A stretch of DNA of 64,000 nt. It comes from a virus. Below the pieces are notes generated by a model. It was given only the letters and a program-made list of their open reading frames with translations. It was not told where the DNA came from and made no database searches. The translations under genes were made by a program, and so were the position numbers. Position 1 is the stretch's first letter, and each line of letters opens with the position of its first letter. This document shows, one piece after another, positions 19,678-35,813 of this stretch. The stretch covers positions 1 to 64,000 of the IMG/VR virus record IMGVR_UViG_3300042562_000747; one strand, written 5' to 3'.

Positions 19678-20646
19678 TTAAAATGTTTGTGCGTATCCTA
19701 ACGGAAATCCATTTCTAAATTCAGATGCCATTCTAGGAATCAATACCTGATAGGTTTTCATTAATTCTATAATACCATCATCTAATGTGTATTTTGGTTT
19801 CCAACCGGTTGCTTCTATTTTTGCATTAGATACAATATAATCTCTTTTATCCGGGTCTTCGTAGTAATCATTATATGATATTGCAAAGTCTGGAATATAT
19901 TTTTGAATAGTTTCTAATAATTCTTGTTTAGTTAAATTTGCGTTACTTAATCCAACATTATAAACATTATGTCTCATTTTATCATAATTATTTAATGCCC
20001 ATAAGAATACATTTGCCACATCTTGAATATGAATAAAGTTTCTCTTAAAATGTTTTTCAAATACGGTTATGTATTTATCTGTCATTGCTTTGTATACAAA
20101 TTCATTAACTAATAAATCAGTTCTCATTCTTGGTGATGTACCAAACACAGTTGCTAATCTAAAAATTATTGCTGAACTACATTCTAATAGTAATTTTTCT
20201 GCTGCACATTTACTTTCACCATAAACTGAAATAGGATTTAAAGGTGATTCTTCGGTACATTCTGTTTGTCCTTCACCGATACCATATCCACTATTTGTAT
20301 TTGGATATAATATAATTTGTTCATCAGTAATTGTATCTAATATAGTTTCTATTTGAGTAAAGTTTACTTCCCATGCTAACTTAGGGTCTTTAGCACAAGC
20401 AGGAAAACCTACAATTGCGGCTAATGGAATAATAACATCATGTATTCCTACTTCATGTCTTAATAATCTTTCATTACGAACATCACCATATATAAAATTA
20501 TATTTTTTATTTGTTGTAAATTGTAATGGAGAAATTTGATTGAATGATAAGTTATCTATGACAGTAACACTATGTCCTGCGTTTAACATCTTTTCGGTAA
20601 TTACTGAACCTAAATAACCTGCACCACCTGTAATTAATATTTTCAT
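19678..20646 (-). CDS. NAD-dependent nucleotide-sugar epimerase (extended SDR)
   Basis: This 322-aa protein has ITGGAGYLGSVITEKM (about residues 4-19), VIDNLSF with the NAD-selecting Asp, YGDVRN, PLAAIVG, and a standard catalytic site: NTNSGYG for the Ser/Thr position and VYGESKCAAEK with a proper YxxxK. HIQDVANVF and VYNVG complete the UDP-glucose 4-epimerase/dehydratase pattern. Unlike the two other SDR genes in the cassette it keeps the catalytic Tyr. The start overlaps the LamG gene stop (TAATG). Confidence 0.88.
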   Translation of the reverse strand: MKILITGGAGYLGSVITEKMLNAGHSVTVIDNLSFNQISPLQFTTNKKYNFIYGDVRNERLLRHEVGIHDVIIPLAAIVGFPACAKDPKLAWEVNFTQIETILDTITDEQIILYPNTNSGYGIGEGQTECTEESPLNPISVYGESKCAAEKLLLECSSAIIFRLATVFGTSPRMRTDLLVNEFVYKAMTDKYITVFEKHFKRNFIHIQDVANVFLWALNNYDKMRHNVYNVGLSNANLTKQELLETIQKYIPDFAISYNDYYEDPDKRDYIVSNAKIEATGWKPKYTLDDGIIELMKTYQVLIPRMASEFRNGFPLGYAQTF

Positions 20647-21356
20647 TATATTAGAGTTTGTTTTATATTTGTAATATCTGCCGTTTCTAATGAGTTTCCT
20701 GCTAATAATTTATTTAATTTAATTTGAATTGTTTTATTCATAAATTCTTCAATATATGCAAAATTACCATTACCACTTTTATCCCACACTTTAAATCTAT
20801 TTACTTTTGTAAAATCTAAATTAGTAACTATACCTTCATTGTTTGAAACTATAAATTCAGATATTATACCATTAAAATAATATCTTTCATTAGTATCTTT
20901 TAAAAATGGATTCATTACACCAATCCATAGTGGTACATGTGCATAATCGCAAGTTTTATATTTACATTTAACCATTCGTTTTTCACCATTTACTGAAACC
21001 AAAAACATACTGATTCCTTCTACATTTTGAATTTGATAAATAACTTTATATTCTTTATCATATTCAAAATCAAATTCTTCAATATGCATATCATCCGAAA
21101 AATTACCACTTTCAGGATTTGCAGTAAATAATACACATTTTAATTTATTATTATCAATATAAACCCCACTATTTACTATTCCAGGTTTTGCAAAAATATA
21201 TTGTTTTTTTCCATTATTTTGTGCAATAAATGTACAATTTATAATTACAGAATCGTTAAACACCGTTCCCAATAAATTAGGTCGTTTGGATGTATTGTGT
21301 TTAGATTCGTTCCATACACTGCAACAAAAAGTATCTTTAAATTCAAATAGTTCCAT
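20646..21356 (-). CDS. LamG/concanavalin-like beta-sandwich protein
   Basis: This 236-aa protein is mostly beta, with LamG-type features: IINCTFIAQNNGKKQYIFAK (probe strand pairs), YDKEYKVIYQI, MFLVSVNGEKRM, PLWIGVMN, RYYFNGIISEFIVSN, and WDKSGNGN near the end. These match the LamG domain inserted in the three GT7-like proteins (YYFKGDIAKVMMWD, LSDNGNHG). A carbohydrate- or acceptor-binding accessory protein is inferred. It is tightly coupled to the flanking radical SAM and epimerase genes by TAATG overlaps on both sides. Confidence 0.7.
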   Translation of the reverse strand: MELFEFKDTFCCSVWNESKHNTSKRPNLLGTVFNDSVIINCTFIAQNNGKKQYIFAKPGIVNSGVYIDNNKLKCVLFTANPESGNFSDDMHIEEFDFEYDKEYKVIYQIQNVEGISMFLVSVNGEKRMVKCKYKTCDYAHVPLWIGVMNPFLKDTNERYYFNGIISEFIVSNNEGIVTNLDFTKVNRFKVWDKSGNGNFAYIEEFMNKTIQIKLNKLLAGNSLETADITNIKQTLI

Positions 21357-22747
21357 TATTTCATTTCTTTACATTTGTTATAAAAATCAGCCAATTCAGG
21401 GAATGTTTTTTCAAAATTAGTTCCCCTTCTTTTATCATGCTCACTAAAAAATTTATAAAAATCTTTTCTATGTGCCATTCTATCTTCATCATCGATTGAT
21501 ATAAAATAATCATAAATTCGTCTAATCTTAACGATTTCAACATCACTAAACCCATAACAATTTACATCATCCCTTAATAATTCATAAAATTCAACTAATT
21601 GTGCTTGTTTAAATATTTCGTCCGACCATTCTTTATCTAATATTCTAATAGATTGATGGTTTGGATATCTTAAATATGAACTATCTAATAATAATGGTTG
21701 TTTATAATATCTTAATGCGTTTGTGTGTTTTGCTTTTAGTGAATATACATCATCAATTAATTTACGATACGATGGTACTGATAATGCGTTGTATGTACTC
21801 ATTATATCTACTGTCAGTCTTGGGATATACTGGCATAAATCATCTATTCTATCCATCAATTGATTATATACTAAACCATTTCTAACGTACTCAGCCTGTG
21901 TACCATATCCATCACAACTTGTGTAAATAATTAATTCTTTAACTAATCCTCGATCGGATATAATTTTAAATTTTTCTCTGAATTTTTTATATAACGAATC
22001 GGGTACACCTAAATTTGAATTGATACTTAAACATAAATTCTTATTTGGATTTGGAGAATCAATGATATAATCTAATACTTTCATAGTATCTTTATGCATC
22101 ATAGGTTCACCACCTGTGATTCTAAATGTATATAAATCTTGATACAACTCCGGCCACCATTTCCAAAATGCTTCTACATATGGATTAAATTCACTTTGTG
22201 GGATTGGTATTCTACCACTACTTACAAAATGTTCTAATCCATTAAAATTATCAGATGTTGGGTATCCACCATGTTGTTCAATTTCTTCCATCCATTTTGT
22301 TGAGAATGGTGGTGCACAATATGAACATTTAAAATTACAAGCATTACTGAATGAAACTTCTACATACGAAGGATTTATATTATCTCTCCAATTACTTTGT
22401 TTAATCTTTTCTAAATGTGGAAATGCCCATGGTTCAGACGATTTAAATGTTCTATCACTAAATTGATTTGAACTATCCTCTACACCCCAACAATAATCAC
22501 ATTCTGCCGGCTTCCCACCTTCTAACATTTCTCTTCTTTTTTGTTTTTTGAAGCGTGTATTATGAAGTGCGGAAGGGTCTCTATTTAATTCAGTTGTTGA
22601 TACCTGATGTGTCATCGGATGGTGACAACTATGATTATGTCCAATATGTAAATGCATTGTTACTTGCATCCATTTTGCTAAACAGAATCCTACTCCTACC
22701 GCATTTAATTGTTCTCTTACACTTTCAAATTTTTCGTAACTAGCCAT
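21356..22747 (-). CDS. Radical SAM protein with extra N-terminal Cys cluster (paralogue 2 of 2)
   Basis: This 463-aa protein has the core motif CNFKCSYC at about residues 132-139 and FRITGGEPMMHKD at about 201-213. The N-terminal Cys/His segments match the paralogue at 18126-19676 one for one: GFCLAKW, HSCHHPMTHQ and ECDYCWGVED. DYFISIDDEDRMAHRKDFYKFF and DKRRGTNFEKTFPEL at the end match DLRSRQRDFKSFY and VRRNKNFVETFPEL there. So the two are full-length paralogues, probably acting on related positions of one product. The substrate is unknown. Confidence 0.88.
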   Translation of the reverse strand: MASYEKFESVREQLNAVGVGFCLAKWMQVTMHLHIGHNHSCHHPMTHQVSTTELNRDPSALHNTRFKKQKRREMLEGGKPAECDYCWGVEDSSNQFSDRTFKSSEPWAFPHLEKIKQSNWRDNINPSYVEVSFSNACNFKCSYCAPPFSTKWMEEIEQHGGYPTSDNFNGLEHFVSSGRIPIPQSEFNPYVEAFWKWWPELYQDLYTFRITGGEPMMHKDTMKVLDYIIDSPNPNKNLCLSINSNLGVPDSLYKKFREKFKIISDRGLVKELIIYTSCDGYGTQAEYVRNGLVYNQLMDRIDDLCQYIPRLTVDIMSTYNALSVPSYRKLIDDVYSLKAKHTNALRYYKQPLLLDSSYLRYPNHQSIRILDKEWSDEIFKQAQLVEFYELLRDDVNCYGFSDVEIVKIRRIYDYFISIDDEDRMAHRKDFYKFFSEHDKRRGTNFEKTFPELADFYNKCKEMK

Positions 22748-24189
22748 TATGCTTTACAATTTATTATTACAGAATTATTACCTATTTCATCTACTGATAT
22801 GAGTTCGTATTCTAAACTATTCATACCATCGTTTTTCCAATTATACTTACCTTGTTGCATTTCTAATATATATCTTCTTTCATTTCTTGCAGTTGTTTCA
22901 CCCTTTGCCCATTTATCTACACCACCAACTGTTATTAGACCTTCGGTTTGGTGTGGTAAACATTCAAACTTACCATCTCTACGGAAAGGTAAGATAGTAT
23001 TATTAACTTTCAAAGTATTTTCTTCTTTTATTTCAACATCATTTATTTCGCCATGATTTCCGTTATCACTTAAATCGTTTAATACATTTCCATTTATTGA
23101 ATTAAAATCATAATGTGCCACCATATCATTCGGAAATTCCATTATTTCATTTTCTGATAAACATCTATCCCACATCATAACTTTTGCAATATCACCTTTA
23201 AACCATCTATTAACCTCATCTACTCCTACCGATGGTGTTGTTCCAATATAGTATGGTTCTGTTCCATATCTTTTTAAATACCCACTATATTCTAATGGTG
23301 ATGTTGCACCTGTTCCAAATCTTGCATCACTTTTTTTACCATTGATGTGAAGTGAAATTAATTTATTATCATCATCAACTGTCAATGTTACCCAACTCCA
23401 TTGTTGTTCGTATCTCTTTGCCCATAGGTATAAAAATTCTCTTTCATTATTCCATAACATAGAAGTAAATGCTCTACTATTATTATACGATATACCCCAA
23501 TCATGTCCCGGTCTGCGAAGGATTGGATATTCACAAAATCTTCTATCTGCATCTCCAATTAAATAAATAGGAACTTTCTCCTCTTGTTGATGTGCTCTTA
23601 CTAATATTGAAACCGTATGTGAACGTGAGCATAAATTTCTAATTGAACGAGATGGTTCTATTTTAACATATGATTTTAATCCATCAAAATATCCATACTT
23701 TTGGTTGGTTATATCCGGTAAATAATGTTGTTCTGCATTACCGGTCAATACACATCTCCAAAAAAGGTCATCATCTTCCATACCCCAATCCCAATAATCG
23801 TTTGAGTAACCATTTGTTGCTCCAACTTGTTCTTTTGTAAACAATACTGCACCACCAAAATACTCCTCATATTTAAGGTTATAATCTGTTTGAGATATTC
23901 TTACTGCTAAATGCTTAGGGTTCTCAGGATTGAACGTATAATCACAAGAACTATCCTCTGGTACCATATCTATATCATGCCATACAATATAATCACATCC
24001 ATCATCAAATGCGTGTTTCGCTGCAATGTTTTTCATCTTACCTCTATTGAATAACTTATCATCACATTGATGCGCAAAATATATTTTATGTTCAATACCT
24101 TGTTCTTCTAAGAATTTATGAACTCTAGGTGAAAACTCTTTTAAATGAGCTTCTCTATTTCTATATGGTACACATACTCCTAACTTCAT
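22747..24189 (-). CDS. GT7-like galactosyltransferase with LamG inserted in the catalytic domain (1 of 3)
   Basis: This 480-aa protein starts like beta-1,4-galactosyltransferases: VPYRNREAHL (about 7-16), FNRGKMKNIA (47-56), WHDIDMVP with the DxD-type metal site (Asp72/Asp74), YFGGAV (110-115), and NGYSNDYWDWGMEDDD (126-141). A LamG beta-sandwich follows at about 168-395 (AHYDFNSINGNVLNDLSDNG near its end). After it the GT7 C terminus resumes: RRDGKFECLPH (His413, the position of the Mn ligand His in animal enzymes), ARNERRYIL, NDGMNSLEYEL. GT7 is known mainly from animals. The ATGA overlap with 24186-25598 suggests serial translation. Confidence 0.88.
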   Translation of the reverse strand: MKLGVCVPYRNREAHLKEFSPRVHKFLEEQGIEHKIYFAHQCDDKLFNRGKMKNIAAKHAFDDGCDYIVWHDIDMVPEDSSCDYTFNPENPKHLAVRISQTDYNLKYEEYFGGAVLFTKEQVGATNGYSNDYWDWGMEDDDLFWRCVLTGNAEQHYLPDITNQKYGYFDGLKSYVKIEPSRSIRNLCSRSHTVSILVRAHQQEEKVPIYLIGDADRRFCEYPILRRPGHDWGISYNNSRAFTSMLWNNEREFLYLWAKRYEQQWSWVTLTVDDDNKLISLHINGKKSDARFGTGATSPLEYSGYLKRYGTEPYYIGTTPSVGVDEVNRWFKGDIAKVMMWDRCLSENEIMEFPNDMVAHYDFNSINGNVLNDLSDNGNHGEINDVEIKEENTLKVNNTILPFRRDGKFECLPHQTEGLITVGGVDKWAKGETTARNERRYILEMQQGKYNWKNDGMNSLEYELISVDEIGNNSVIINCKA

Positions 24190-25598
24190 AGTTTAACTGA
24201 AATTTTTATTGCTTTTTCTGAAAGTTTGTTACTTTCTATTTCTTTATATATGCAGGTGTTTAATCCATCTATTGATAAATCTACTATATTACCTTTCATT
24301 TCGTTGTAAAATCTTTCTTGATTTTTTCTTGTTTCTGAATGTACCCAATTATTCCCAATTGTTGAATTTGAACTATGTTTTAATGTTTTAAATTTTCCTT
24401 CTCGTCTAATTGGAACTATAATTTCTGTTTCAAATTTATCTACCAATATGTTATCTTCACAATTGTAAATAAATCCATTATTTTTATTGCCACTTAAATC
24501 TTGTATAATATCACCTTTAAAATTTTTAAAATCATAATAACATTTTAAGTATTTTGATTTATCATATTTTCTATAATCATTAATTATAGATTTGTATAAT
24601 GAATTTTCATATACTTCTTTTATGTTATCTAATTCTAATACAATATTCCAAATAGCAAACTCAGCAATTAATCCTTTAAAATAAAATTGTTTAGCATCTA
24701 ATGTTGGATTACCTACCCCAATATAAAAATAATCATTATCATATTCATATATTTGTTCTTTTAATTCTTTGGTATCGATTAGTTCACCATTCATATAAAA
24801 AGAAAATATATCATCTTCTTTTGTAATTACTAAGTGTGACCATACTTCACCAATGATATCACTTTGAATAGATGTTGAAATATCATCTTTAGTCCAAATC
24901 TCACCTTTGTATCGTTTGAATGATGTGTATGATATACCTGTGTTTCTACCTGGTATTGAAGTAATCTGATATTCATCAAACTGCTCTTTTAATGAAGTTT
25001 TACTATCTTCTGGTTTTACTTTAATTGATATTGTAAAATCACCATTAAAAATAGATGCTAGATTTTTGTAAGGAATTTTAATGTAAGATTCTTTACCATC
25101 AAATTTAAAATAATTTATTAAATAGTTTTTATCAGGTATACCTACTGAAATTTTATCCAATGGTATGTTTCTCTGAATACATCTATATAATAAATCATCA
25201 TCTTCAAATCCCCATCCCCAATACTCATTAGAATATCCATTTACTAATTTGTAATCATGCACATTAAATAACGTAACACCACCAAAGTAATCAATGAATG
25301 GTATATCTTTATTAATTTTAGATACTAAATGAATTGGTGTATCCGGATAAGAATAATCTACTCCCTTTAAAGGTAACATATCTACATCGTGTAATGCAAA
25401 ATAATCAAACCCTTCTTTAATTGCAATCCTAGCTCCTACGTTTAAAAGTTTACCTCTATTAAAAGGCTTATCATCACTCTGTTCAATGACAAAGATTTTA
25501 TAATCGTAATCCTTTAAATACTCTTGCATATAAGGAACGAATACTTCTAAATGAGATTTTCTGTCTCTATATGGAACTATTATTGCTAATTTTTTCAT
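24186..25598 (-). CDS. GT7-like galactosyltransferase with LamG inserted in the catalytic domain (2 of 3)
   Basis: This 470-aa protein is the best match of the three to the GT7 signature: VPYRDRKSHL, FNRGKLLNVGARIA (46-59), LHDVDMLP (Asp71/Asp73), DYFGGVTLF (103-111), NGYSNEYWGWGFEDDD (120-135). The LamG insertion spans about 165-385 (YFKFDGKESYIKIP at the start, DLSGNKNNGFIYN near the end). The GT7 end then follows: RREGKFKTLKH (His408 as likely metal ligand), QERFYNEM, SIDGLNTCIYKEI. All acidic catalytic residues appear intact. It would use a UDP-sugar and Mn2+ on an unknown acceptor. Confidence 0.9.
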   Translation of the reverse strand: MKKLAIIVPYRDRKSHLEVFVPYMQEYLKDYDYKIFVIEQSDDKPFNRGKLLNVGARIAIKEGFDYFALHDVDMLPLKGVDYSYPDTPIHLVSKINKDIPFIDYFGGVTLFNVHDYKLVNGYSNEYWGWGFEDDDLLYRCIQRNIPLDKISVGIPDKNYLINYFKFDGKESYIKIPYKNLASIFNGDFTISIKVKPEDSKTSLKEQFDEYQITSIPGRNTGISYTSFKRYKGEIWTKDDISTSIQSDIIGEVWSHLVITKEDDIFSFYMNGELIDTKELKEQIYEYDNDYFYIGVGNPTLDAKQFYFKGLIAEFAIWNIVLELDNIKEVYENSLYKSIINDYRKYDKSKYLKCYYDFKNFKGDIIQDLSGNKNNGFIYNCEDNILVDKFETEIIVPIRREGKFKTLKHSSNSTIGNNWVHSETRKNQERFYNEMKGNIVDLSIDGLNTCIYKEIESNKLSEKAIKISVKL

Positions 25599-25819
25599 TA
25601 AGCTTCTCTTTCGGACTCTTTATCTGGTCTTGTAGATGTTCCAACTGCTTTGGTTTTAGCAATATTGTAAAACTCATTCAAATACCATTCTAATCTTGTA
25701 GACCATCCTTTGGTATCTAAATCGTATAACCAATCACTAATGTCTTGTGTAGAGTGTGCAATACTTTCTAATGCTTTTACACCTCTTTCTTCGGTTGTTA
25801 ATTCTTTTTTCTCTGCCAT
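25598..25819 (-). CDS. Small protein of unknown function (73 aa)
   Basis: This 73-aa acidic protein is predicted mostly helical (ERGVKALESIAHSTQDISDW, TRLEWYLNEFYNIAKTKAVG) with a charged tail ending ESEREA. It lies between a GT7-like gene (TAATG-type overlap at 25598) and the 101-aa small gene, so it is almost certainly translated. The leader is A-rich. No recognised domain. Confidence 0.65.
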   Translation of the reverse strand: MAEKKELTTEERGVKALESIAHSTQDISDWLYDLDTKGWSTRLEWYLNEFYNIAKTKAVGTSTRPDKESEREA

Positions 25820-25831
25820 TTTATTTGTTTT

Positions 25832-26137
25832 TTAATAATTTAATAATTTAGTTATAACTTCTGCAAATGCTTTATTTTCATGTCCATCTTCCCAAACTTT
25901 ATCTTTAATTTGTTTTAATTTTTCTCTTTCTATTACAAATTTATCATATTGAATTACATAATCAAATGTATTAGAACCATCTTTATGATACATCTTCATT
26001 AATCCCTCAATATTTAAAATCAATTTAGGTAGAAAAAATCCAAAGTCTCCTTTTGTTTCTTTCATCACTTCTAATTCCTGTGCAATTGCTTCTAATTTTT
26101 TTACAAATGCCTCATTTTTTAATAACTTGTTTATCAT
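25832..26137 (-). CDS. Small helical protein of unknown function (101 aa)
   Basis: I chose the ATG at 26137 because it makes an ATGA overlap with the stop of the upstream GT7-like gene; a start six codons earlier (26155) would overlap by 22 bases. The protein begins MINKLLKNEAFVKKLEAIAQ, is helical and mixed-charge, and has a FFLPKLILNIEGLMKMYHK amphipathic stretch. No known family. Position in the cassette suggests an accessory role. Confidence 0.65.
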   Translation of the reverse strand: MINKLLKNEAFVKKLEAIAQELEVMKETKGDFGFFLPKLILNIEGLMKMYHKDGSNTFDYVIQYDKFVIEREKLKQIKDKVWEDGHENKAFAEVITKLLNY

Positions 26138-27615
26138 AAAATTATTTTTAACCATTCGGTTTGTTTATCAAATGTTTCTTGTTTAATTAATTTAAATTTT
26201 AAATTATTTAATCCTATCTTAGTAGTAGAAAACTTTTCAGTTAATATATCATTAAAAAATATTAATCCATTTTCAATAATATCAGGATCAAATGATTTAA
26301 ATCGATTAACAATATCGGTATCATTCTCATGTGGTAATGATTGAAAGTTTGCTTCAATTCTTTTTGGTAATTTTATTTTAGAAGTTTTTATTATTTCATC
26401 GTTTAAAAGATATTCTGAATAATTACTACCATGTGTGTTATACAATGTAGAATGATTGTGATGCTTACTACCATCCATTACAAAGTTTTTATAAAAATTA
26501 TTAAACTGATATTTTAACGTTGGTTCAAATTGTGTTTGTAACTTTCTATTATTAATCAATCCATTTAAATATAAATTTTTGATTTCCGAATCACTTAGTG
26601 TATAATCAAACATATAAAGATTAGCCAATTTACCTCTAAACATATTTTTACCATGTGAACCACATCCAATATAAATTTTATCTTTTGTATAATCCCACAA
26701 TGGTAATTCAAATTGTGTTAGTGTATCTACTTTTTTATTTTCTTCAAACGTATCTACAATCAATCTTAATTTATTTGAATCAAAATCAACATTACATACA
26801 ATATGATGCCATTGATTTGGTTTTAATTTTCTATAATTAAAATAATATTTATTATCTTTTCCCCAAAAATTAAATCGTAATGTGTTGTCTGGTTGAATTG
26901 AAATACCACTATTGAATCCAGGAAATGAAACTACATATTGTTCCTCTTTAACAAAATCATCAAAGTTAATCCAAGCTGATATTGTAAATGAATCGGTTGT
27001 AATTCCTTTTAAGAATTTATTTGGTAATACTTCCATTTGAGTTTCACCATCAAATTTTAAATACGATACTTTTTCTTTTTTAATTGAATCTGTAATTCTT
27101 AGTCTATCTATTTCATATTCAGTATCTACTCTTGGGTAAATGTATTCTGAATCTAATTTAACACCGGCTTTTTCCATTCTAAATAATAAATCTAAATCAG
27201 CATATCCCCATCCATAATATTCATTTGAATATCCATTTACTAAAATAAAATCTTCTTTTGGAATTATTAATACACCACCTAAATATTGTAAATAAGGTAA
27301 CGTATTTTCATGTACTTGCACTCGCGTTGCTAAATGTGTTGGATATTGTTTATAAGAATAATCGGCCTTATCGGATGATGGTAACATATCAACATCGTGA
27401 AAACAAAAATAATCATATTCATCTTTTAGTAAATGAAATGCCGAATTACATAACTTACCATAATTAAAGGGTTTATCATCCGATTGTTCAATTACAAATA
27501 TTTTATAATCAATATTTTTATCTTTTAAAAACGATTGTATATGTGGCAAGAAAATATCGAGATGTTCTCTCCTATCTCTATATGGTACTACAATTGCTAA
27601 TTTATGATTACTCAT
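26134..27615 (-). CDS. GT7-like transferase with LamG insertion, divergent acidic motif (3 of 3)
   Basis: I place the start at the ATG at 27615 (MSNHKLAIVVPYRDRREHL); a longer reading would need TTG at 27630. GT7 motifs: VPYRDRREHL, FNYGKLCNSA (50-59), FHDVDMLP (Asp74/Asp76), YLGGVL, NGYSNEYYGWGYADLD (127-142). In the last, the usual WGxEDDD has become WGYADLD, losing the conserved Glu and one Asp. The LamG insertion lies at about 185-405 (YLKFDGETQMEVLP, MFRGKLANLYMFD). The GT7 end has RIEANFQSLPH (His429) and IGLNNLKFKL. It may have altered donor or acceptor use, or reduced activity. Confidence 0.85.
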   Translation of the reverse strand: MSNHKLAIVVPYRDRREHLDIFLPHIQSFLKDKNIDYKIFVIEQSDDKPFNYGKLCNSAFHLLKDEYDYFCFHDVDMLPSSDKADYSYKQYPTHLATRVQVHENTLPYLQYLGGVLIIPKEDFILVNGYSNEYYGWGYADLDLLFRMEKAGVKLDSEYIYPRVDTEYEIDRLRITDSIKKEKVSYLKFDGETQMEVLPNKFLKGITTDSFTISAWINFDDFVKEEQYVVSFPGFNSGISIQPDNTLRFNFWGKDNKYYFNYRKLKPNQWHHIVCNVDFDSNKLRLIVDTFEENKKVDTLTQFELPLWDYTKDKIYIGCGSHGKNMFRGKLANLYMFDYTLSDSEIKNLYLNGLINNRKLQTQFEPTLKYQFNNFYKNFVMDGSKHHNHSTLYNTHGSNYSEYLLNDEIIKTSKIKLPKRIEANFQSLPHENDTDIVNRFKSFDPDIIENGLIFFNDILTEKFSTTKIGLNNLKFKLIKQETFDKQTEWLKIIL

Positions 27616-27650: not shown

Positions 27651-28490
27651 TTAAACTGACTGAATTATTTTGAAGATTATCCGCCATAAACTATAACCCA
27701 ATACACCCGCATCTTCAATCATAAATCTCTCATCATAAATATCAATTTTAAAATTATTTGATTTTAATGCATCATACATTATTTGATATTCTTTTGAATA
27801 GGCGTAATCTTTTTTGATATCTGCCACTGCTTTAATTCGTTCTACACAAGTTGAATCCCATTTAAAATGATGAACTTGTACATTGTATTCATTTGTTGGT
27901 GCTATTAATGGATGATTCCAACCTTGCCATTTCCAAGTTGTTTGTCCATCTATTATTGCATAGTGTTGACCTGGTGTAATTTCTACCCATCCTTTCATTA
28001 TACACATTTTATTTGGACATGCATTACTCAATGGATAACGAAAGCATCCTGCTAATGGAAATTGTTCAAATATATTTATATCTTCTTTTAATTCTGGAAA
28101 TTCACCATCCCTACCAATTCTGTCAACAAATCCACCTCTAACCATTACCCATCCATTCGATTCACATTCATCTATAATTGTATTTAAATCTTTTGAATAT
28201 ACATGAAACTCGTCATCATCTGATACTATCCACCAATCATCAGGATACATCATTTTTATTTCATTATACAATTTAGTTACATATTCCCAATTGAATTTTT
28301 CTTTATAAACTCTCTTTACTATTTTTGCCGTTGGAAATTGTGAAACAATATCATTTACTGCTTCGTATAAACTTTTTCCTTCCCATTCATATACCACCAC
28401 ATACATTTCATCTACTAAATCTTTATAGTGATTTAGCATATGTTTTAATGTTGATGTTCTACTACCTGTAACTGTAACTAATCTTTTCAT
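27651..28490 (-). CDS. Putative GT-A fold glycosyltransferase
   Basis: This 279-aa protein begins RLVTVTGSRTSTLKHMLNHY, as in GT2/GT92-type enzymes that start with a substrate-scanning beta-alpha unit. A metal-binding acidic motif WWIVSDDDEFHVY lies at about residues 86-98. GGFVDRIG, HHFKWDSTCVERI and a Trp-rich GQTTWKWQGWNHP follow, resembling GT2-like and DUF4422/GT92-type phage proteins. The end is hydrophobic (GYSLWRIIFKIIQSV), possibly membrane-associating. Its ATG overlaps the stop of the methyltransferase gene. Transferase function likely; specificity unknown. Confidence 0.7.
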   Translation of the reverse strand: MKRLVTVTGSRTSTLKHMLNHYKDLVDEMYVVVYEWEGKSLYEAVNDIVSQFPTAKIVKRVYKEKFNWEYVTKLYNEIKMMYPDDWWIVSDDDEFHVYSKDLNTIIDECESNGWVMVRGGFVDRIGRDGEFPELKEDINIFEQFPLAGCFRYPLSNACPNKMCIMKGWVEITPGQHYAIIDGQTTWKWQGWNHPLIAPTNEYNVQVHHFKWDSTCVERIKAVADIKKDYAYSKEYQIMYDALKSNNFKIDIYDERFMIEDAGVLGYSLWRIIFKIIQSV

Positions 28491-29245
28491 TATTTTTTTC
28501 TTACTAATGTTAATCCTGTTGATGCCGGTTTGTTTTTTTGAATACCAAAGTTAAATAAATCAAACACTTGCCATTTATCTGTATCTATTTCTTTTGCCAA
28601 TTGTATAGGTCCTTTCCAATCATCAAAATCACCCCTATCTTTAACCTCATTTGTCACTATGTATTTATCTGCATAATTAGGGTCAGTATCGTGAATTGAT
28701 ATAATACCATTTTCACTCATTAACTGAGAATATAAGTCAAAATCTTCTTTTACATTTTCATAACTATGTCCTGCATCAATATGCAAATAATCAATCTTAA
28801 TATCATTTAATATAAAGAAATTATGAAACGCATTTGCAGTTGTATCGTTTATAATTCTTGGTGAAAACAATCTTCTAAAAAATGATTCTTCTTTTAACCA
28901 ATTCACATTACCACCAATACCATTTGCTGCATCTACAATATATGTAGTACCAATATCACCCCAACTTTTATCATTATTACCTTCAAATATATTTTGAGAA
29001 TGCAAATCCATTTTAGCCTGCGTCATAATTCTAGGTATAAATCCGCCACCACTACCTAAACATACACATACTTTTGCTCTCATATATTGAATCAACGAAT
29101 AAATAATTAATCCATCACCCAAATGGTCATCCGTTGCACCATGTGACCAACGATATGGAACATTAATTAAAACCTGGTCTCCATACTCATCTATTTCTTG
29201 ATTATTAGAAATAAATTCTTTTATGTAATCTTTATTTGTTATCAT
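28490..29245 (-). CDS. Class I SAM-dependent methyltransferase (Methyltransf_24-like)
   Basis: This 251-aa protein has the SAM-binding glycine loop VCVCLGSGGGFIPRIM (about residues 55-70), YLHIDAGHSYENVKEDFDLY (motif with the cofactor Asp and metal-coordinating Asp/His region), and GIISIHDTDPNYAD. This order matches Methyltransf_24/cephalosporin-hydroxylase (CmcI)-type enzymes, which often methylate sugar or polyketide hydroxyls. In this cassette O-methylation of a sugar is the likely role. The 5' end overlaps the next gene by 14 bases. Confidence 0.8.
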   Translation of the reverse strand: MITNKDYIKEFISNNQEIDEYGDQVLINVPYRWSHGATDDHLGDGLIIYSLIQYMRAKVCVCLGSGGGFIPRIMTQAKMDLHSQNIFEGNNDKSWGDIGTTYIVDAANGIGGNVNWLKEESFFRRLFSPRIINDTTANAFHNFFILNDIKIDYLHIDAGHSYENVKEDFDLYSQLMSENGIISIHDTDPNYADKYIVTNEVKDRGDFDDWKGPIQLAKEIDTDKWQVFDLFNFGIQKNKPASTGLTLVRKK

Positions 29246-30020
29246 TTAATAATTTATTTTTATGATATAACTGAACATTTTTTAATGTATCTTCGTTTAT
29301 TTTATAAAATGTGTTTGGCATTAATATTGGTTTTATTTTATCAATATACCAATGATAATATACAATTGAATTAAAATGTAAATCGTATTTTGAAATATAA
29401 GCTGAGTATAAATTATCTGAATCTTTGTTTAGATAGTTTTCTAACATTCCATCTAATTTAGAATCATTATTAGTTAAAAAATATTCTTTTATTTTATTTA
29501 CTTCTAATTCAAAATTTATTTCCTTTAACCCATAGTGTTTGAATATATCCTGTTGAAAAAAGAAATTAAATGAAATATTTTTTTGTTTTATAAAATTTGC
29601 TAACTCATTTATATCATTTAATGTTTTTTTAATATATTCAAATTTGTTTAAAATTGGTTTATTTAAATCAAAATAATCATCTTGTAATTCTTTTGTTATC
29701 ATTTTAGTTTTATCCATTGATAACATATTTCTAAAAAAATAAGTAAATTGAATTCCACAATATATTAAATCTGCATCTATTCCTTTTTGTAATAATTCTT
29801 CAATTTTAGTTTTTATTCTGTCTATTATATAATGATTTCCGGCCGAAGGTCTTCCTAAATAATAAAATTTATATTCTATATTATTTTCTCGATATTCATC
29901 TTCTAAAAAATGAAACCAATTACCATTATCCATATTAATAATTTGTTCTGGTGTTTTGGTTTTTTTTAATTCATTTGTATAATAACTAAATGAATCCCCC
30001 GCTACTATTATATGTTTCAT
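29232..30020 (-). CDS. SGNH-like hydrolase (paralogue 3 of 3, divergent)
   Basis: This 262-aa protein opens with block I, IIVAGDSFSYYTNEL (GDS with Ser as nucleophile, about residues 4-18), and has YYLGRPSAGNHYIIDRI, a possible Gly/Asn block. A clear DxxH block V is not seen near the C terminus; HFNSIVYYHWYIDKI and LYHKN are the only His-bearing candidates. It is much more diverged than the pair at 7532-8434 and 8933-9826. The start overlaps the upstream GT-B gene (ATGA). Function inferred from fold only. Confidence 0.6.
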   Translation of the reverse strand: MKHIIVAGDSFSYYTNELKKTKTPEQIINMDNGNWFHFLEDEYRENNIEYKFYYLGRPSAGNHYIIDRIKTKIEELLQKGIDADLIYCGIQFTYFFRNMLSMDKTKMITKELQDDYFDLNKPILNKFEYIKKTLNDINELANFIKQKNISFNFFFQQDIFKHYGLKEINFELEVNKIKEYFLTNNDSKLDGMLENYLNKDSDNLYSAYISKYDLHFNSIVYYHWYIDKIKPILMPNTFYKINEDTLKNVQLYHKNKLLNDNK

Positions 30021-31030
30021 TTATTTAAAATATTTGTAATTTCATATATCCATTCCTCTTTACTACTATATTGTTGTAATGCTTCTTTTAATTTAAAAAA
30101 GTTATATTGTCTTTCTAATTCAAAATCATTACACATTATTTCATACATCTTATTAAATTCCTCTTTTGTATTTGCTCTATATTTGTAATCTATTTTAGGT
30201 AACCAAAACTTATTTAGAATTGGAAGCTTACCATAATCAATTGCGTTAAATATAGAATAACCAAATGGTTCGTTTACATAACATCCGTGAAATACCGTAA
30301 AGTCTAAGTTAAAGAAATTTCTGTGGTTTTCCAAATTATATGGGTAGAATCTTACTTTTTTTAAATCTAAGTTTAATCCTTCTTTTAAATTTTCATATCC
30401 CATCCAATCGGTAATAGCATATCCTTTATGTTTATCTAAGAAATGAAAACACTTTCTTGTCTCACTTCTTGCCGCATATCCTATCTTATCCGTATTCCAT
30501 CTATATTCTATATTATGATTAAACTCATAGTAATTTGATATCTGAATTGTTTTTTCTTTAAAATCTGTTTGTACTAATCCATTATTACAACCAATCCAAA
30601 CTATTTGTTTACATTTTTCTAATACATCCTGTTCCCATTGTAAATCCATTGTAGTAGGTAAATAAACTCTATCTAATCCTAAATCTATATTGGTGTTTAT
30701 AATTTCTTTTATATAAGCGTGACAAAATATTGTATGGAATTTATGTTTGTATTCCCACAATTCATCTCTACGATAATAGTTGTTGTGTAAAAAATGTATT
30801 CTTCTACAATTTCTTAAAAGTGGTGGTATTAATAGTGGTGTTTCTTTTGAAAATACAAATTGACAAGGAATAGATGTGGGGTTAAATCCATTTGGTTTTC
30901 TACCATCAATTAATAATATTATTGGGTATTTTAAATATGGTACAACATTCTCTAAAAAATTATTTACCCATATATCACTACCACCCATCGGAACATTACC
31001 TGCTCCAGTCGTAACTAATAAATCAAACAT
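30017..31030 (-). CDS. GT-B fold glycosyltransferase (GT4-like)
   Basis: This 337-aa protein has an N-terminal loop VTTGAGNVPMGGSDIWVNNF typical of GT4 acceptor domains, a central KIGYAARSETRKCFHFL segment with the basic residues that hold donor phosphates, and NEPFGYSIFNAIDYGKLPIL near the C terminus. The last is the EPFGxxxxEAxxxGxPV motif (EX7E-like, second acidic residue replaced by Asn/Asp). It is the first gene of the cassette after the tail-fibre chaperone-like gene. A T4-late-like CTATAAATA lies just upstream of the start. Confidence 0.78.
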   Translation of the reverse strand: MFDLLVTTGAGNVPMGGSDIWVNNFLENVVPYLKYPIILLIDGRKPNGFNPTSIPCQFVFSKETPLLIPPLLRNCRRIHFLHNNYYRRDELWEYKHKFHTIFCHAYIKEIINTNIDLGLDRVYLPTTMDLQWEQDVLEKCKQIVWIGCNNGLVQTDFKEKTIQISNYYEFNHNIEYRWNTDKIGYAARSETRKCFHFLDKHKGYAITDWMGYENLKEGLNLDLKKVRFYPYNLENHRNFFNLDFTVFHGCYVNEPFGYSIFNAIDYGKLPILNKFWLPKIDYKYRANTKEEFNKMYEIMCNDFELERQYNFFKLKEALQQYSSKEEWIYEITNILNK

Positions 31031-31616: not shown

Positions 31617-34600
31617 TTATTGAATTATCATTATTGATACAAACCTATTATCCGGTGTTTCGACACCTAAATCCATAGTAAATCCTGTGTGGAATATATT
31701 ACTTATACCTGCCTGTTGAAATTGTGTGGGGCCGTCATTGGTTCTATTTCCTATAAATACACTATATGTACCACCACCGGAGTATGCACCATATGAATCC
31801 ATAATTGCTTCTGCAAATGTTACTTGAAATTTACCATAACTAATTCTAGTTATACTTTCAATATTATATGCGTAAGGCCACCAAGAATCTTCGTATACAC
31901 TAAATCCGGTATTAGTATTTGGTTGAAACCATCCATATGCTCTAGTTAAATTAAATGACCGTGCATATCCACCAAAGAAAAATGAAGTAATAAAATTACC
32001 ACCAGCTGCTCTATTTGCAAATGAATATTGTGCACTTCGGATATATTGTTTTTGTTTACCACTATGCCAATCATTTTTATCAGTTGCATTTAATACAACC
32101 AAAGTACCACCCATTATACCGGTAACTTCCGTATTTCCCTGGTCACCCAAATATTGTGGTGGAGAAGCACCATACAATGCAGGGTCATTATACATATACC
32201 AACCTGATGGCCTGATTTGTAAGTATCTATTTGTATCTTGTACAACCTGAAATCCTTGTTGGTTTATATTTGTTTTAGGCACATTGGAAATATATTGCAC
32301 ATTTGTTGCCGGCCAATATGCGTTAATTGTCAAATTTGCACCATAAGGAATATTATAAACTATATATTGTATTGTAAATCTAACAGCAACACCTGCGGTT
32401 AATAATTGGTTAGAGAAATATGCACCTGTTCCATCTCTGTCATATTGATTACCATATGTTCCAGGTGCAAAATACGGACGACCTGCAGGTGGAGTTGCAT
32501 TAACATCTGCACCTTCTACCGGGCCTTCGATATATTCTCTACCTTCATCGTTTATTAAAGAATTACCCGCCATATCATATATGTATGCTCTTAATCCTTG
32601 ATAACCACCACCAGTTCCACTACTTCCCAACCCAACATGCTTTGGAAACCAAGTTGTAAATTCATAGAATCCTGTAATAGTTGGTGTAAATACAACTTGT
32701 TGTGACCATTGTAATGAATATGTATTAGTTCCCGCATTGTACGTTACTGCAGTATTACCACCAGATGCTGCACCATTATTATAGTAACTTGTTTGTGCAG
32801 CTTGTGCCGGTACTACAATGTTTCCACTATCACTACCCGCTGAAGGACTTGGTAATGTTGCACTTGAATCTATTGTTACTTTATTTTGACCGGCTGAATC
32901 TTTTAATTCAATAAATCCAGTACTATATAAATAAGTTTGTGAATTTGATGAACGTAAATATCCATTACCAATTTCCCATCCTCCAATATTTCCAGATATA
33001 GTTGTTATATTTCCATTTACGGTTAGGGTATTATTTGCTGCATTAAAATTTAATTTGTTACTTAATGAAAAATAACCACCATCATTTATATAGAATCCAG
33101 TATCTGCATTATACCAATTTCCTGCTCCTGAATATATTGCTTTGTTTAATCCACTAATTGTTAATGCACTAGTACCACCAACCTTTACTGTATTTGAAAA
33201 ATACCCATCGGCTCCTGCTATAATAGGAGATACGATACTTTGTCCTGAAATTAATGTTCCCCCGCTATAAGAACCATTTGCTATATTATCTGCAATTGTT
33301 TTTGCATTTGTGTATGCTGTATTTGCTGATAAATATGCTGAATGCGAAGCGTTACTATATGCTCCTGCTGCCATTATAAATGCACTTGATGATGCATTTG
33401 TGTATGCACCACCTGCTATTGTAAATGCGGAGGCGGATGCATTTGTGTATGCACCACCTGCCATTGTAAATGCGGAGGCGGATGCATTTGATTGTGCTGT
33501 ATTTGCAGAATTAGTTGCCATTGTAAAAGCAGAGGCAGATGTTGCTGCATCACCACCGGTAACGTTAATAATACCATTTATAGTTAATACACCATTTGCC
33601 CAAGTTAAAGCATTGGTTCCAGGTCCACTTAAATAAAAGTTACCATTGTTAGCCATATAGGTTTTCCAATCAGTTCCATTGTAATATCCTAAATAAGATG
33701 AGCCTAAATATAACCCCGATGTACTACCTACCAAAACAACAGGTGGTCTATTTATTAAACCAGTTGTAGAGGTAAATATATTTGGTGCTAAAGAATTACT
33801 AACATTATTTGCTGCATTTGAACCCGAAGTTACTGCGTTTGCAGCTGCCGTTGCAACACTACTTGTTGTTGCAGCATTTCCACCTTGAATATTAATTACA
33901 CCTTGAACTTGTAATGTTCCTAATGAACTATTCCAAGCTAAAAAATTATTGTTTGAACCAGTAAGATAGAAATCACCCTGATTATCCATATATGTTTTCC
34001 AACTACTTCCACTATAAAATCCTAAATAAGTTGAACCTAAATATAATCCATTTATTGTGGATGATGTTGTTGGTGTTTTATTTAATTTACCATTTTCATC
34101 TGTAAAAATAAATTTCTCTAAATATGCGGATGCTGAATAAACTGTAAAAGATGAATTAGATACTGAACTACTAATATTTGATAAGGATGCACTTAATGAT
34201 GAGGATAAAGTTGATAATGATGTACTTACTGATGAACTTAAATTAACTACACTTCCACTTACTACATTGATAGAACTACTCAATGAACCACTTACTAAAT
34301 TTATAGATGTGCTCACCGAACCACTTAATGTAGATACCGATGCACTTGTAAATAATGATGCCGTAAATGTTGATTGAGAAATACTACTACTTAAAGATGC
34401 ACTTGTTGCGGCAATACTGCTACTTACACTTTGTGATGTTGATGAAATACTACTACTAACTGATTGTGATAATGCAGTTAATGCCGCGTTTGATGATGAT
34501 GCTGAACCACTAATCAACGCCTGTGTTAAACTATTGCCCCCATTAAATGTTGCACTTTGTGTTACTGCAACTGGAACATAATTATTGTTTATATCATAAA

Positions 34601-35813
34601 ATTCAAACTTAAAATTAAAAATATCATTACCTAATATAGTTGGCATTGATGTAATAAAACTAATTTCGTTTGGGGAGAATGCGGTATCTTGTGAAAGGTT
34701 TAACGATATATTTCCAACATGCCATTGGTTTGTTCCAGATGATTGTGATAAGTATAAACTTGCAGTTGGTTCATCCTTTGGTATTTTAAATGCAGTTATA
34801 GTTGTTTCAAAGTTTTTAGTTGGAATTGAACCACTAAATGTTGTAATTGGAATTTCACCATTTTGAGTACCACTTATATACGCTACTAAATTTGTTGCAC
34901 TTGAACCTGTATAAAATACATCTAATTGTAATTCATATGTATTTGAACTAAGTAAATTTAATGATGATGTAAAACTGAATTTACCACTACCACTTAATTG
35001 TAAACCATTTTCAACATTGGTTGTATCTAATACGGCGTACAATGAACTTGTATTCCAAACTTTACTTAAAGTATCAGGACCAAATGTTCCTGCATTTCCA
35101 ACTACACTCCCACTTAATTCATATGTAGTTAAAAGATTTTTAGCTTCTATTGAAATATCTTGTATTAAATCATAATCCGATATATCACCTTCGGATGTTC
35201 TATATACTTTAACTCTAGCTACATCTCCGGCGAATGTATCTAATTGATTTACAGTTATACTTGCAAATGATTGTGTTACTAACGATGCTACTTTACTACC
35301 ACTTACAATTGAATATAATGGTTGTAATAATTCTGTAATTGTAACTACCGGTCTTTTTTTAAATCTTACTCTTGTAGTGTTGGATAATGCTGGATTAATA
35401 TTAACTCTACCCTGCCACTTTACATTATATTTGTTTTGCCAATCAATTGGAACATTTACATTTTTAGTATTAAGTTCACCTAAAATTGTAATTGTTGCCG
35501 GTCCAAATGCGGTTTCGGTTGGATAAACATATACTGCTACTACTTTAGAATTACCTTCATAGTATTCGTTTGGACTACCATCTGAAAATTCATGATAAAC
35601 AATATTGCCAGCTGCATCTCTAATTTGAATTTTTATTTCTGAATTCGCTTCTAATAAATCAGAACCTGCTATTAGGAATGCGTTTTTACCTCCTGAAAAA
35701 GAATCGGAGAGTTCACTTATATTAAAGTATTCTGAATTTATTGAAGTATCTGTAATTAGTGTCTGTACTAATTCTAATTTTTCTTCGGGTGCAACTTTTA
35801 TATCAACGGCCAT
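31617..35813 (-). CDS. Large tail fibre protein
   Basis: This protein has 1398 residues. Residues 1-430 are beta-rich with IQIRDAAGNIVYHEF and Ig-like segments and probably anchor to the baseplate. Residues about 437-561 are a Ser-rich repeat (SLSSSI, SVSSSI, SGSLSSSI) likely to form a trimeric shaft. Two fibre modules follow at about 578-645 and 692-757 (GLYLGSTYLGFY...KTYMDNQGDFYLTG; GLYLGSSYLGYY...KTYMANNGNFYLSG), then four or so 15-residue repeats (763-822), a third module with YYNNGAASGG, and a C-terminal receptor-tip region with many Tyr, Gly and Trp. It precedes the chaperone-like genes and the glycan cassette. Confidence 0.88.
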   Translation of the reverse strand: MAVDIKVAPEEKLELVQTLITDTSINSEYFNISELSDSFSGGKNAFLIAGSDLLEANSEIKIQIRDAAGNIVYHEFSDGSPNEYYEGNSKVVAVYVYPTETAFGPATITILGELNTKNVNVPIDWQNKYNVKWQGRVNINPALSNTTRVRFKKRPVVTITELLQPLYSIVSGSKVASLVTQSFASITVNQLDTFAGDVARVKVYRTSEGDISDYDLIQDISIEAKNLLTTYELSGSVVGNAGTFGPDTLSKVWNTSSLYAVLDTTNVENGLQLSGSGKFSFTSSLNLLSSNTYELQLDVFYTGSSATNLVAYISGTQNGEIPITTFSGSIPTKNFETTITAFKIPKDEPTASLYLSQSSGTNQWHVGNISLNLSQDTAFSPNEISFITSMPTILGNDIFNFKFEFYDINNNYVPVAVTQSATFNGGNSLTQALISGSASSSNAALTALSQSVSSSISSTSQSVSSSIAATSASLSSSISQSTFTASLFTSASVSTLSGSVSTSINLVSGSLSSSINVVSGSVVNLSSSVSTSLSTLSSSLSASLSNISSSVSNSSFTVYSASAYLEKFIFTDENGKLNKTPTTSSTINGLYLGSTYLGFYSGSSWKTYMDNQGDFYLTGSNNNFLAWNSSLGTLQVQGVINIQGGNAATTSSVATAAANAVTSGSNAANNVSNSLAPNIFTSTTGLINRPPVVLVGSTSGLYLGSSYLGYYNGTDWKTYMANNGNFYLSGPGTNALTWANGVLTINGIINVTGGDAATSASAFTMATNSANTAQSNASASAFTMAGGAYTNASASAFTIAGGAYTNASSSAFIMAAGAYSNASHSAYLSANTAYTNAKTIADNIANGSYSGGTLISGQSIVSPIIAGADGYFSNTVKVGGTSALTISGLNKAIYSGAGNWYNADTGFYINDGGYFSLSNKLNFNAANNTLTVNGNITTISGNIGGWEIGNGYLRSSNSQTYLYSTGFIELKDSAGQNKVTIDSSATLPSPSAGSDSGNIVVPAQAAQTSYYNNGAASGGNTAVTYNAGTNTYSLQWSQQVVFTPTITGFYEFTTWFPKHVGLGSSGTGGGYQGLRAYIYDMAGNSLINDEGREYIEGPVEGADVNATPPAGRPYFAPGTYGNQYDRDGTGAYFSNQLLTAGVAVRFTIQYIVYNIPYGANLTINAYWPATNVQYISNVPKTNINQQGFQVVQDTNRYLQIRPSGWYMYNDPALYGASPPQYLGDQGNTEVTGIMGGTLVVLNATDKNDWHSGKQKQYIRSAQYSFANRAAGGNFITSFFFGGYARSFNLTRAYGWFQPNTNTGFSVYEDSWWPYAYNIESITRISYGKFQVTFAEAIMDSYGAYSGGGTYSVFIGNRTNDGPTQFQQAGISNIFHTGFTMDLGVETPDNRFVSIMIIQ
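33346..33525 (-). repeat. 45-bp tandem coding repeats in the tail fibre
   Basis: Four 45-base units encode NASASAFTMAGGAYT-type 15-mers. The copies at 33391-33435 and 33436-33480 differ at only one base, while flanking copies are degenerate. The period keeps frame, so units could be gained or lost to change fibre length. Confidence 0.85.

What the first reader, a model, noticed from the sequence alone, without database searches (positions are those of the whole stretch)
22747..27615. GT7 galactosyltransferase fold interrupted by a LamG domain, in three tandem-like copies
Seen in sequence: in all three genes the GT7 motifs (VPYR[DN]R, FN[RY]GK, HD[IV]DM[LV]P, Y[FL]GG[AV], NGYSN[DE]Y) stop after the acidic motif. 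About 220 residues of LamG-like beta sandwich follow, and then the GT7 C terminus resumes (H of LKH/LPH; DGLN or DGMN). In animal B4GALT1 the metal ligands are Asp254, Met344 and His347 (MIRH), and the loop after them closes on the donor. The insertion falls between the acidic motif and that His. Inference: LamG presents the acceptor glycan over the active site.
Basis: partly seen in the sequence, partly recalled or inferred. Interest (0 to 1): 0.82.

Follow-up and report, generated by a model that had tools for sequence, protein, structure and literature searches.

The report
Phage galactosyltransferase split by lectin-like domain
Large environmental phages carry two or three side-by-side sugar-transferring enzymes related to animal beta-1,4-galactosyltransferase, each with a lectin-like (LamG) domain inserted into the middle of its catalytic domain; this conserved but undescribed enzyme design probably sets which molecule gets decorated with sugar during infection.

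Summary
Each of the three genes encodes GT7 residues ~1-157, a LamG domain of ~235 residues, then the real GT7 C terminus. An HMM built only from LamG-free GT7 tails hits all three proteins after LamG (E 1.7e-12, 2.5e-10, 2.7e-6; best of 303 shuffled or reversed controls 1.8).

The design is widespread. In 406 GT7 ORFs the gap before the C-terminal block is either 0-19 residues or 200-320 residues, and every long gap holds LamG. A tree needs one insertion (SH-aLRT 95), then triplication. The genes sit in a fixed module: (fibre)-GT-methyltransferase-GT2-GT7L x2-3-radical SAM-free LamG.

Copies 1 and 2 keep the catalytic residues. Copy 3 is sliding toward a pseudoenzyme in relatives, losing the post-LamG His together with DxD/D318. 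No such architecture was found in GenBank phages, PDB, BFVD, PHROGs or open literature.

That LamG presents the acceptor is plausible but untested; protein docking is the main rival. Verdict: new variant of a known enzyme kind.

The parts
22747..24189 (-). copy 1: GT7 split by LamG (P0001, 480 aa), catalytic residues intact
   Evidence: Pfam GT7N/GT7C/Laminin_G_3; AF2 pLDDT 93.5, pTM 0.87; DxD, W314, E317, D318, D319, H347 invariant in 87 of 87 relatives
23719..24189 (-). copy 1 GT7 N part (residues 1-157): VPYRNR, FNRG, HDIDM, WDWGMEDDDL
   Evidence: 150 columns on B4GALT1, rmsd 1.2-1.4 A
23008..23712 (-). copy 1 inserted LamG domain (residues about 160-394)
   Evidence: Pfam Laminin_G_3 1.1e-10; Foldseek to pentraxins, PAPP-A, 4dqa
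22750..22989 (-). copy 1 GT7 C part (residues 401-480), strand RRDGKFECLPH with the His (H413 = bovine H347) and NDGMNSL
   Evidence: compact-GT7 tail HMM 1.7e-12
24186..25598 (-). copy 2: GT7 split by LamG (P0002, 470 aa), catalytic residues intact; stop overlaps the copy 1 start
   Evidence: tail HMM 398-469 at 2.5e-10
24423..25121 (-). copy 2 inserted LamG (residues about 160-392)
   Evidence: Laminin_G_3 1e-17
24189..24416 (-). copy 2 GT7 C part (residues 395-470)
26134..27615 (-). copy 3: GT7 split by LamG (P0003, 493 aa), altered active site (FNYG, GWGYADLDL); pseudoenzyme-tending clade
   Evidence: AF2 pLDDT 93.7, pTM 0.87; tail HMM 413-491 at 2.7e-6
26386..27078 (-). copy 3 inserted LamG (residues about 180-410)
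   Evidence: Laminin_G_3 3.5e-21
26137..26379 (-). copy 3 GT7 C part (residues 413-493)
25832..26155 (-). 107-aa ORF between copies 3 and 2, no family
21356..22747 (-). twitch-domain radical SAM protein; next gene after copy 1 in 76 of 80 relatives
   Evidence: NCBIfam NF033640 4.1e-97
20646..21356 (-). free-standing LamG protein homologous to the inserted LamG
   Evidence: 73 of 76 such ORFs hit by the inserted-LamG HMM; hhalign probability 99.7, E 1.2e-25
27651..28490 (-). GT2-like gene, directly before the GT7-LamG array in 72 of 80 relatives
28490..29245 (-). methyltransferase (Methyltransf_24) of the same module
   Evidence: 3.5e-10; present upstream in 72 of 79
30017..31030 (-). 337-aa protein conserved in the module, possibly a glycosyltransferase (no family hit)
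31617..35813 (-). 1398-aa fibre-like protein with a Ser/Thr-rich stretch (42% at residues 401-600); candidate target
   Evidence: composition; homologue upstream in 24 of 79 loci; fibre assignment from sequence character and position, no family hit

Best explanation
These are cytosolic phage glycosyltransferases of the GT7 (beta-1,4-galactosyltransferase) family in which one LamG domain was inserted once, in a common ancestor, into the turn that precedes the strand carrying the metal-site His. The array was then triplicated. Shown: the split-domain architecture, its single origin, its conservation, and the fixed gene module. Inferred: copies 1 and 2 transfer a sugar (Gal or a related hexose) from a UDP donor by the usual inverting GT7 chemistry. 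The inserted LamG acts as a substrate-recognition module that holds the acceptor (a growing glycan or the protein that bears it) next to the active site. Copy 3 is becoming a non-catalytic partner. The module builds a glycan on a virion protein, most likely the fibre encoded just upstream, rather than on the host envelope.
For: Post-LamG segment = GT7 C terminus: reciprocal HMM tests with shuffled and reversed controls. Gap length is bimodal, 0-19 or 200-320 residues, and LamG is the only insert in 406 ORFs. One insertion on the tree, SH-aLRT 95, with three paralogue clades. Confident models of copies 1 and 3, N part on B4GALT1 at 1.2-1.8 A. DxD, W314, E317, D318 and H347 invariant in copy 1 (87/87) and at least 84/86 in copy 2. 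LamG diverges faster than the GT part in every copy (51 vs 74%, 32 vs 58%, 30 vs 55% mean identity), as expected of a specificity module on a fixed catalyst. Entry and exit points of the insert are coupled (152-394), and two of the four strongest couplings pair GT with the C part (97-407, 42-464). A free-standing homologue of the same LamG is in the module. No membrane-anchor segment in the three enzymes and no polytopic membrane protein among window minus-strand ORFs. Fibre homologue upstream in 24 of 79 loci. Lectin domains that tune glycosyltransferases are established in other families (PMC9296478, PMC4432651).
Against: No direct evidence for LamG ligand, donor, acceptor or activity. LamG domains often bind proteins, not sugars. 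Coevolution enrichment between GT and C part is weak overall (1.1-1.2 fold). The fibre link is by proximity only, and the flank limit left many loci uninformative. Published work on analogous clusters in pelagimyophages reads them as host O-chain modification (PMC7029224). Host enzymes could supply membrane steps.
Confidence: 0.5

Rival explanations
1. LamG is a protein-protein docking domain: it tethers the GT7 enzymes to the fibre protein, to each other, or to the radical SAM and free LamG proteins of the module, without contacting the acceptor sugar.
For: Fixed module with a free LamG homologue; one contig with an in-frame GT7-LamG/radical-SAM fusion; insertion at the far end of the strand from the metal site; pentraxin and PAPP-A like LamG folds can bind proteins (fold match, function own knowledge).
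Against: A docking domain is more commonly added at a terminus; the single unvarying insertion site next to the catalytic strand suggests coupling to the active site. Neither point is a test.
Confidence: 0.27
2. The module alters the host envelope glycan during infection (O-chain modification, exclusion of other phages), as proposed for glycosyltransferases in the host recognition clusters of pelagimyophages.
For: Published reading of similar clusters with fibres, glycosyltransferases and radical SAM genes (PMC7029224); deoxysugar and epimerase genes and a NodU/Nol-like carbamoyltransferase nearby.
Against: No flippase, polymerase, ligase or other polytopic membrane protein seen in the window; the three enzymes have no membrane segment.
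Confidence: 0.2
3. LamG is a passive, tolerated insert (a mobile domain that landed in a surface turn) with no role in the reaction.
For: LamG evolves faster than the GT part; ConA-like folds have adjacent termini and insert easily (own knowledge); LamG-free phage and bacterial GT7s exist in the same family.
Against: Never lost in any sampled member of the clade; specific conserved motifs in copy 1 LamG (NNSR, GD..R.F.EYP, R.GtG..SP); retained even where copy 3 lost its catalytic residues.
Confidence: 0.08
4. Copy 3 acts as a non-catalytic specificity subunit for copies 1 and 2, while copies 1 and 2 make different linkages.
For: Copy 3 relatives lose E317/D318/D319, W314, DxD and H347 yet keep LamG and gene position; the window's copy 3 keeps the fold in a confident model.
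Against: 36-40 sampled copy 3 genes against about 80 or more of copies 1 and 2: many phages have only two copies, so it is dispensable; the window's own copy 3 keeps DxD, D318 and His.
Confidence: 0.15

Closest known systems
B4GALT1 / B4GALT7 (CAZy GT7; PDB 6fwu, 1fr8, 4irq, 4lw6)
   Same: N part 33-39% identical over about 150 residues, rmsd mostly 1.2-1.8 A; DxD, WGWGxEDDD, C-terminal His and DGLN block; Tyr289 kept in copies 1 and 2
   Different: A LamG of about 235 residues sits between the base helix and the His strand; Met344 replaced by Cys/Thr/Ser; no membrane anchor; cytosolic phage protein
LamG-free GT7 of bacteria and viruses (Parachlamydiaceae, Pelagibacteraceae, Azospirillum, phage contigs such as L149)
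   Same: Same two GT7 blocks; up to 46-47% identity to copy 1 in the N part
   Different: Blocks contiguous (gap 0-19 residues); lie on the other side of a supported branch
Glycosyltransferases with appended lectin domains: GalNAc-Ts (GT27), MGAT4A (GT54)
   Same: Catalytic GT-A domain plus carbohydrate-binding domain that tunes substrate choice (PMC4432651, PMC9296478)
   Different: Their lectin domain follows the catalytic domain; here it is inserted inside it, and it is LamG rather than ricin-type or the MGAT4A lectin
Hypervariable regions HV1-HV3 of the GT-A fold (PMC7185993)
   Same: Large acceptor-related variation grafted on a conserved core
   Different: The described HVs lie between beta3/alphaC, beta6/beta7 and after beta8; this insert lies between the xED helix (alphaF) and beta8, by my reading of that text
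Pelagimyophage host recognition cluster (PMC7029224)
   Same: Fibres, glycosyltransferases and radical SAM genes together in T4-like phages
   Different: That paper stresses GT8; the words LamG and galactosyl do not occur in it

Membership tests
GT7 (Pfam PF13733 + PF02709) | N-terminal and C-terminal family profiles above curated cut-off | tested here: met
   all three copies (67-89 bits N, 54-67 bits C)
GT7 (Pfam PF13733 + PF02709) | DxD, W314, E317-D318-D319 of the acidic motif | tested here: met
   Copies 1 and 2. Copy 3 of the window keeps DxD, W314 and D318 but has A317 and L319; several relatives lose more or all of them
GT7 (Pfam PF13733 + PF02709) | C-terminal His (H347) and DGLN block following the acidic helix | tested here: met
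   Present after LamG; tail HMM; His 87/87, 84/86, 26/40 in copies 1-3
GT7 (Pfam PF13733 + PF02709) | Contiguous catalytic domain (usual, not strictly defining) | tested here: not met
   Interrupted by 200-320 residues in every LamG member; this is the variant feature
GT7 (Pfam PF13733 + PF02709) | His brought to the DVD site in three dimensions | not testable with these tools
   Models confident but coordinates not exposed; homology only
B4GALT1-type beta-1,4-galactosyltransferase activity | Met344 as third metal ligand | tested here: not met
   Cys/Thr/Ser at that column
B4GALT1-type beta-1,4-galactosyltransferase activity | UDP-Gal donor, beta-1,4 linkage to GlcNAc/Glc | not testable with these tools
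   Tyr289 kept in copies 1 and 2 is compatible with Gal preference (own knowledge), no more
LamG / Laminin_G_3 (PF13385) | Profile above cut-off and jelly-roll fold | tested here: met
   42, 65 and 76 bits against 27.6; Foldseek hits to pentraxins, PAPP-A, 4dqa
LamG / Laminin_G_3 (PF13385) | Carbohydrate binding | not testable with these tools
   Not a universal property of LamG
Phage host recognition cluster | Fibre gene adjacent to glycosyltransferases | tested here: inconclusive
   Fibre homologue in 24 of 79 loci, another large ORF upstream in further loci; flank limit

The most novel reading that the evidence does not exclude
LamG, anchored on the strand that ends in the metal-site His, gates catalysis: ligand binding in LamG moves that strand and the loop after it, so transfer occurs only on the recognised acceptor. 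The pseudo-GT7 copy 3 pairs with copies 1 and 2 as a specificity subunit, a phage counterpart of alpha-lactalbumin in lactose synthase.
Probability: 0.1. Interest if true: 0.8.

Novelty: new variant of a known kind. Interest (0 to 1): 0.56.

Why it matters
A whole beta-sandwich domain inserted between the catalytic base and the metal ligand of a GT-A enzyme, at one site, kept through triplication and spread over hundreds of environmental phage contigs, is a natural experiment in how acceptor choice is wired into a glycosyltransferase. It gives enzymologists a new scaffold for acceptor-directed sugar transfer, and it marks an undescribed phage glycan module next to a fibre gene that may affect adsorption in uncultured phages.

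Tried and rejected
Single-sequence phmmer to PDB did not see the resumed C terminus (score -0.5); a family-level HMM was needed. Foldseek could not test rejoining, because alignments stop at the insert. Other domains inserted at the same site: none in 406 ORFs. Repeated independent insertions: one change suffices. Assembly artefact: the same architecture and order in about 80 contigs. Relatives in GenBank phages: none by tblastn with all three copies or with a LamG-free phage GT7; the same program finds Azospirillum GT7 in plasmids, so the search works. Literature: no paper joins GT7 with LamG in phages. Mean-field coevolution gave only weak domain-pair enrichment. The FNYG variant of copy 3 alone was not taken as inactivation, since compact GT7s of Pelagibacteraceae also carry it.

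Full report
What is there. The window is part of an 83,317-base IMG/VR virus record of a large contractile-tailed phage. A baseplate wedge protein at 53127-55139 is about 40% identical to those of Flavobacterium phage immuto and Microcystis phage Mel-JY01. On the minus strand, three genes (26134-27615, 24186-25598, 22747-24189) encode proteins of 493, 470 and 480 aa. Each gives Glyco_transf_7N, Glyco_transf_7C cut at profile position 62-64 of 78, and Laminin_G_3, all above curated cut-offs. The best PDB relative of copy 1 is B4GALT1 (6fwu, 4.7e-30, residues 2-151).

Does GT7 resume after LamG? Yes by sequence. I collected LamG-free GT7s from bacterial genomes and viral contigs. The phage post-LamG profile hits 40 of 58 LamG-free GT7s at E<0.01, always starting 0-10 residues after the acidic block, with 0 of 342 shuffled or reversed controls. 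Conversely, a profile of LamG-free tails only hits copy 1 at 401-473 (1.7e-12), copy 2 at 398-469 (2.5e-10) and copy 3 at 413-491 (2.7e-6); the best control is 1.8. Example: Parachlamydiaceae GT7 reads EDDDLRVRCFMHGLTIES-RAGTFLSLSH...DGLDSLHF without interruption; copy 2 reads EDDDLLYRCIQRNIPLDK-[LamG]-RREGKFKTLKH...DGLNTCIY. In bovine numbering the insert replaces about residues 335-338, between the helix carrying E317-D318 and the strand ending in H347 (assignment by hand, consistent with the columns).

Structure. AlphaFold2 gives pLDDT 93.5 and pTM 0.87 for copy 1, 93.7 and 0.87 for copy 3. After LamG the secondary structure is strand, loop with two short strands, helix, two strands, the order expected of the GT7 C terminus (own knowledge of B4GALT1). 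The N part superposes on B4GALT1 over 150 columns at 1.2-1.4 A (copy 3: 154 columns, 1.7-1.8 A). LamG matches pentraxins, PAPP-A and 4dqa. Coordinates were not exposed, so the His-DVD distance is not measured.

Distribution and origin. A scan of IMG/VR found 492 relatives; the best 80 loci hold 193 full-length proteins of this design and no complete GT7 without LamG. Among 406 GT7 ORFs from three searches (some contigs counted twice) the gap is 0-19 residues without LamG or 200-320 with LamG, nothing else. On a tree of the GT7 core (LamG columns left out) LamG presence needs one change (SH-aLRT 95), and copies 1, 2 and 3 fall in separate clades (100, 95, 99; quick method, no bootstrap). So one insertion, then triplication before the spread. 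A few LamG members sit in bacterial MAGs, several with the phage module around them. The sampling takes best matches to conserved patterns, so frequencies are not estimates.

Active sites. In 87 copy 1 relatives DxD, W314, E317, D318, D319 and H347 are invariant; in 86 copy 2 relatives nearly so. In 40 copy 3 relatives D318/DxD and H347 are kept together in 26 and lost together in 13, with 1 discordant (Fisher p 1e-9, but the sequences are related, so this is not an independent count). The joint loss is what one expects if the post-LamG His belongs to the same active site. Copy 3 is therefore a clade drifting to a pseudoenzyme; the window's own copy 3 is intermediate (GWGYADLDL, DxD and His kept). 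Met344 is not conserved (Cys in 79 of 87 copy 1s).

Module. Order in relatives: (fibre) - GT_30017 - methyltransferase - GT2 - GT7L copy 3 - copy 2 - copy 1 - twitch radical SAM (next gene in 76 of 80) - free LamG. The free LamG is homologous to the inserted one (73 of 76 at E<0.01; hhalign 99.7%, 1.2e-25). One contig has an in-frame GT7-LamG/radical SAM fusion. Epimerases, a dTDP-sugar isomerase, TPP-enzyme pieces and a 2OG oxygenase follow. No polytopic membrane protein was seen in the window and none of the three enzymes has a membrane segment by simple hydropathy. A fibre homologue lies upstream in 24 of 79 loci; the window's fibre-like protein has a 200-residue stretch with 42% Ser+Thr.

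How it probably works. Shown: architecture, single origin, catalytic conservation, module. Inferred from established GT7 chemistry: copies 1 and 2 transfer a hexose from a UDP donor with D318 as base and DxD plus His as metal site. Inferred: LamG recognises the acceptor. Supporting hints are its faster divergence than the GT part (51 vs 74, 32 vs 58, 30 vs 55% identity), conserved copy-specific motifs, and precedents of lectin-tuned glycosyltransferases (PMC9296478, PMC4432651). The target is inferred from proximity: a virion protein, most likely the fibre. The published reading of analogous clusters, host O-chain modification (PMC7029224), is a live rival.

Novelty. No member in GenBank phages, no match covering both domains among the Foldseek hits listed from PDB or BFVD, no PHROG for the whole protein, no paper found. 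By the description of the GT-A fold in PMC7185993 the insert is in none of the three known hypervariable regions. It is a new variant of a known enzyme family, not a new kind.

Noticed in passing
window 36499-39645 (-): One 1048-aa ORF matches SbcD-like (residues 2-302) and SbcC-like (349-1047) families: a fused T4 gp47/gp46-type nuclease.
   Followed up: no
window 59180-60895 (-): Nol/NodU-like carbamoyltransferase (phrog_1601, 1.7e-121), another sugar-modifying gene near the tail genes.
   Followed up: no
window 16951-17625 and 8427-8972 (-): Split TPP-enzyme pieces (E1 dehydrogenase-like and transketolase pyrimidine-binding) inside a sugar cluster with RmlC and epimerases; possibly a branched or unusual sugar.
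   Followed up: no
window 18126-19676 (-): A second twitch radical SAM gene; some relatives carry five or more in a row (L292-L294); compare a T4-like marine genome with 12 radical SAM genes in PMC5332604.
   Followed up: partly
L078:4175-6916: Natural in-frame fusion of GT7-LamG copy 1 with the twitch radical SAM protein, with the last part of the GT7 C terminus missing.
   Followed up: partly
window 44470-49656 (-): 1728-aa protein with a weak LamG match at residues 1074-1204, below the Pfam cut-off.
   Followed up: no
L084, L085, L087, L089: GT7-LamG genes, with other genes of the phage module, on contigs binned into bacterial MAGs (Pelagibacterales, Gammaproteobacteria, Flavobacteriales): probably phage contigs in the bins.
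   Followed up: partly
L088:4842-6428: A single GT7-LamG gene in a different setting (65,957-base MAG contig, next to a GT2 protein, an ABC transporter, a kinase-LRR protein and an SNF2 protein): possibly a bacterial copy outside the phage module.
   Followed up: partly
window 1932-6089 (-): 1385-aa protein with an N-terminal cytidylyltransferase-like domain and DUF5661.
   Followed up: no
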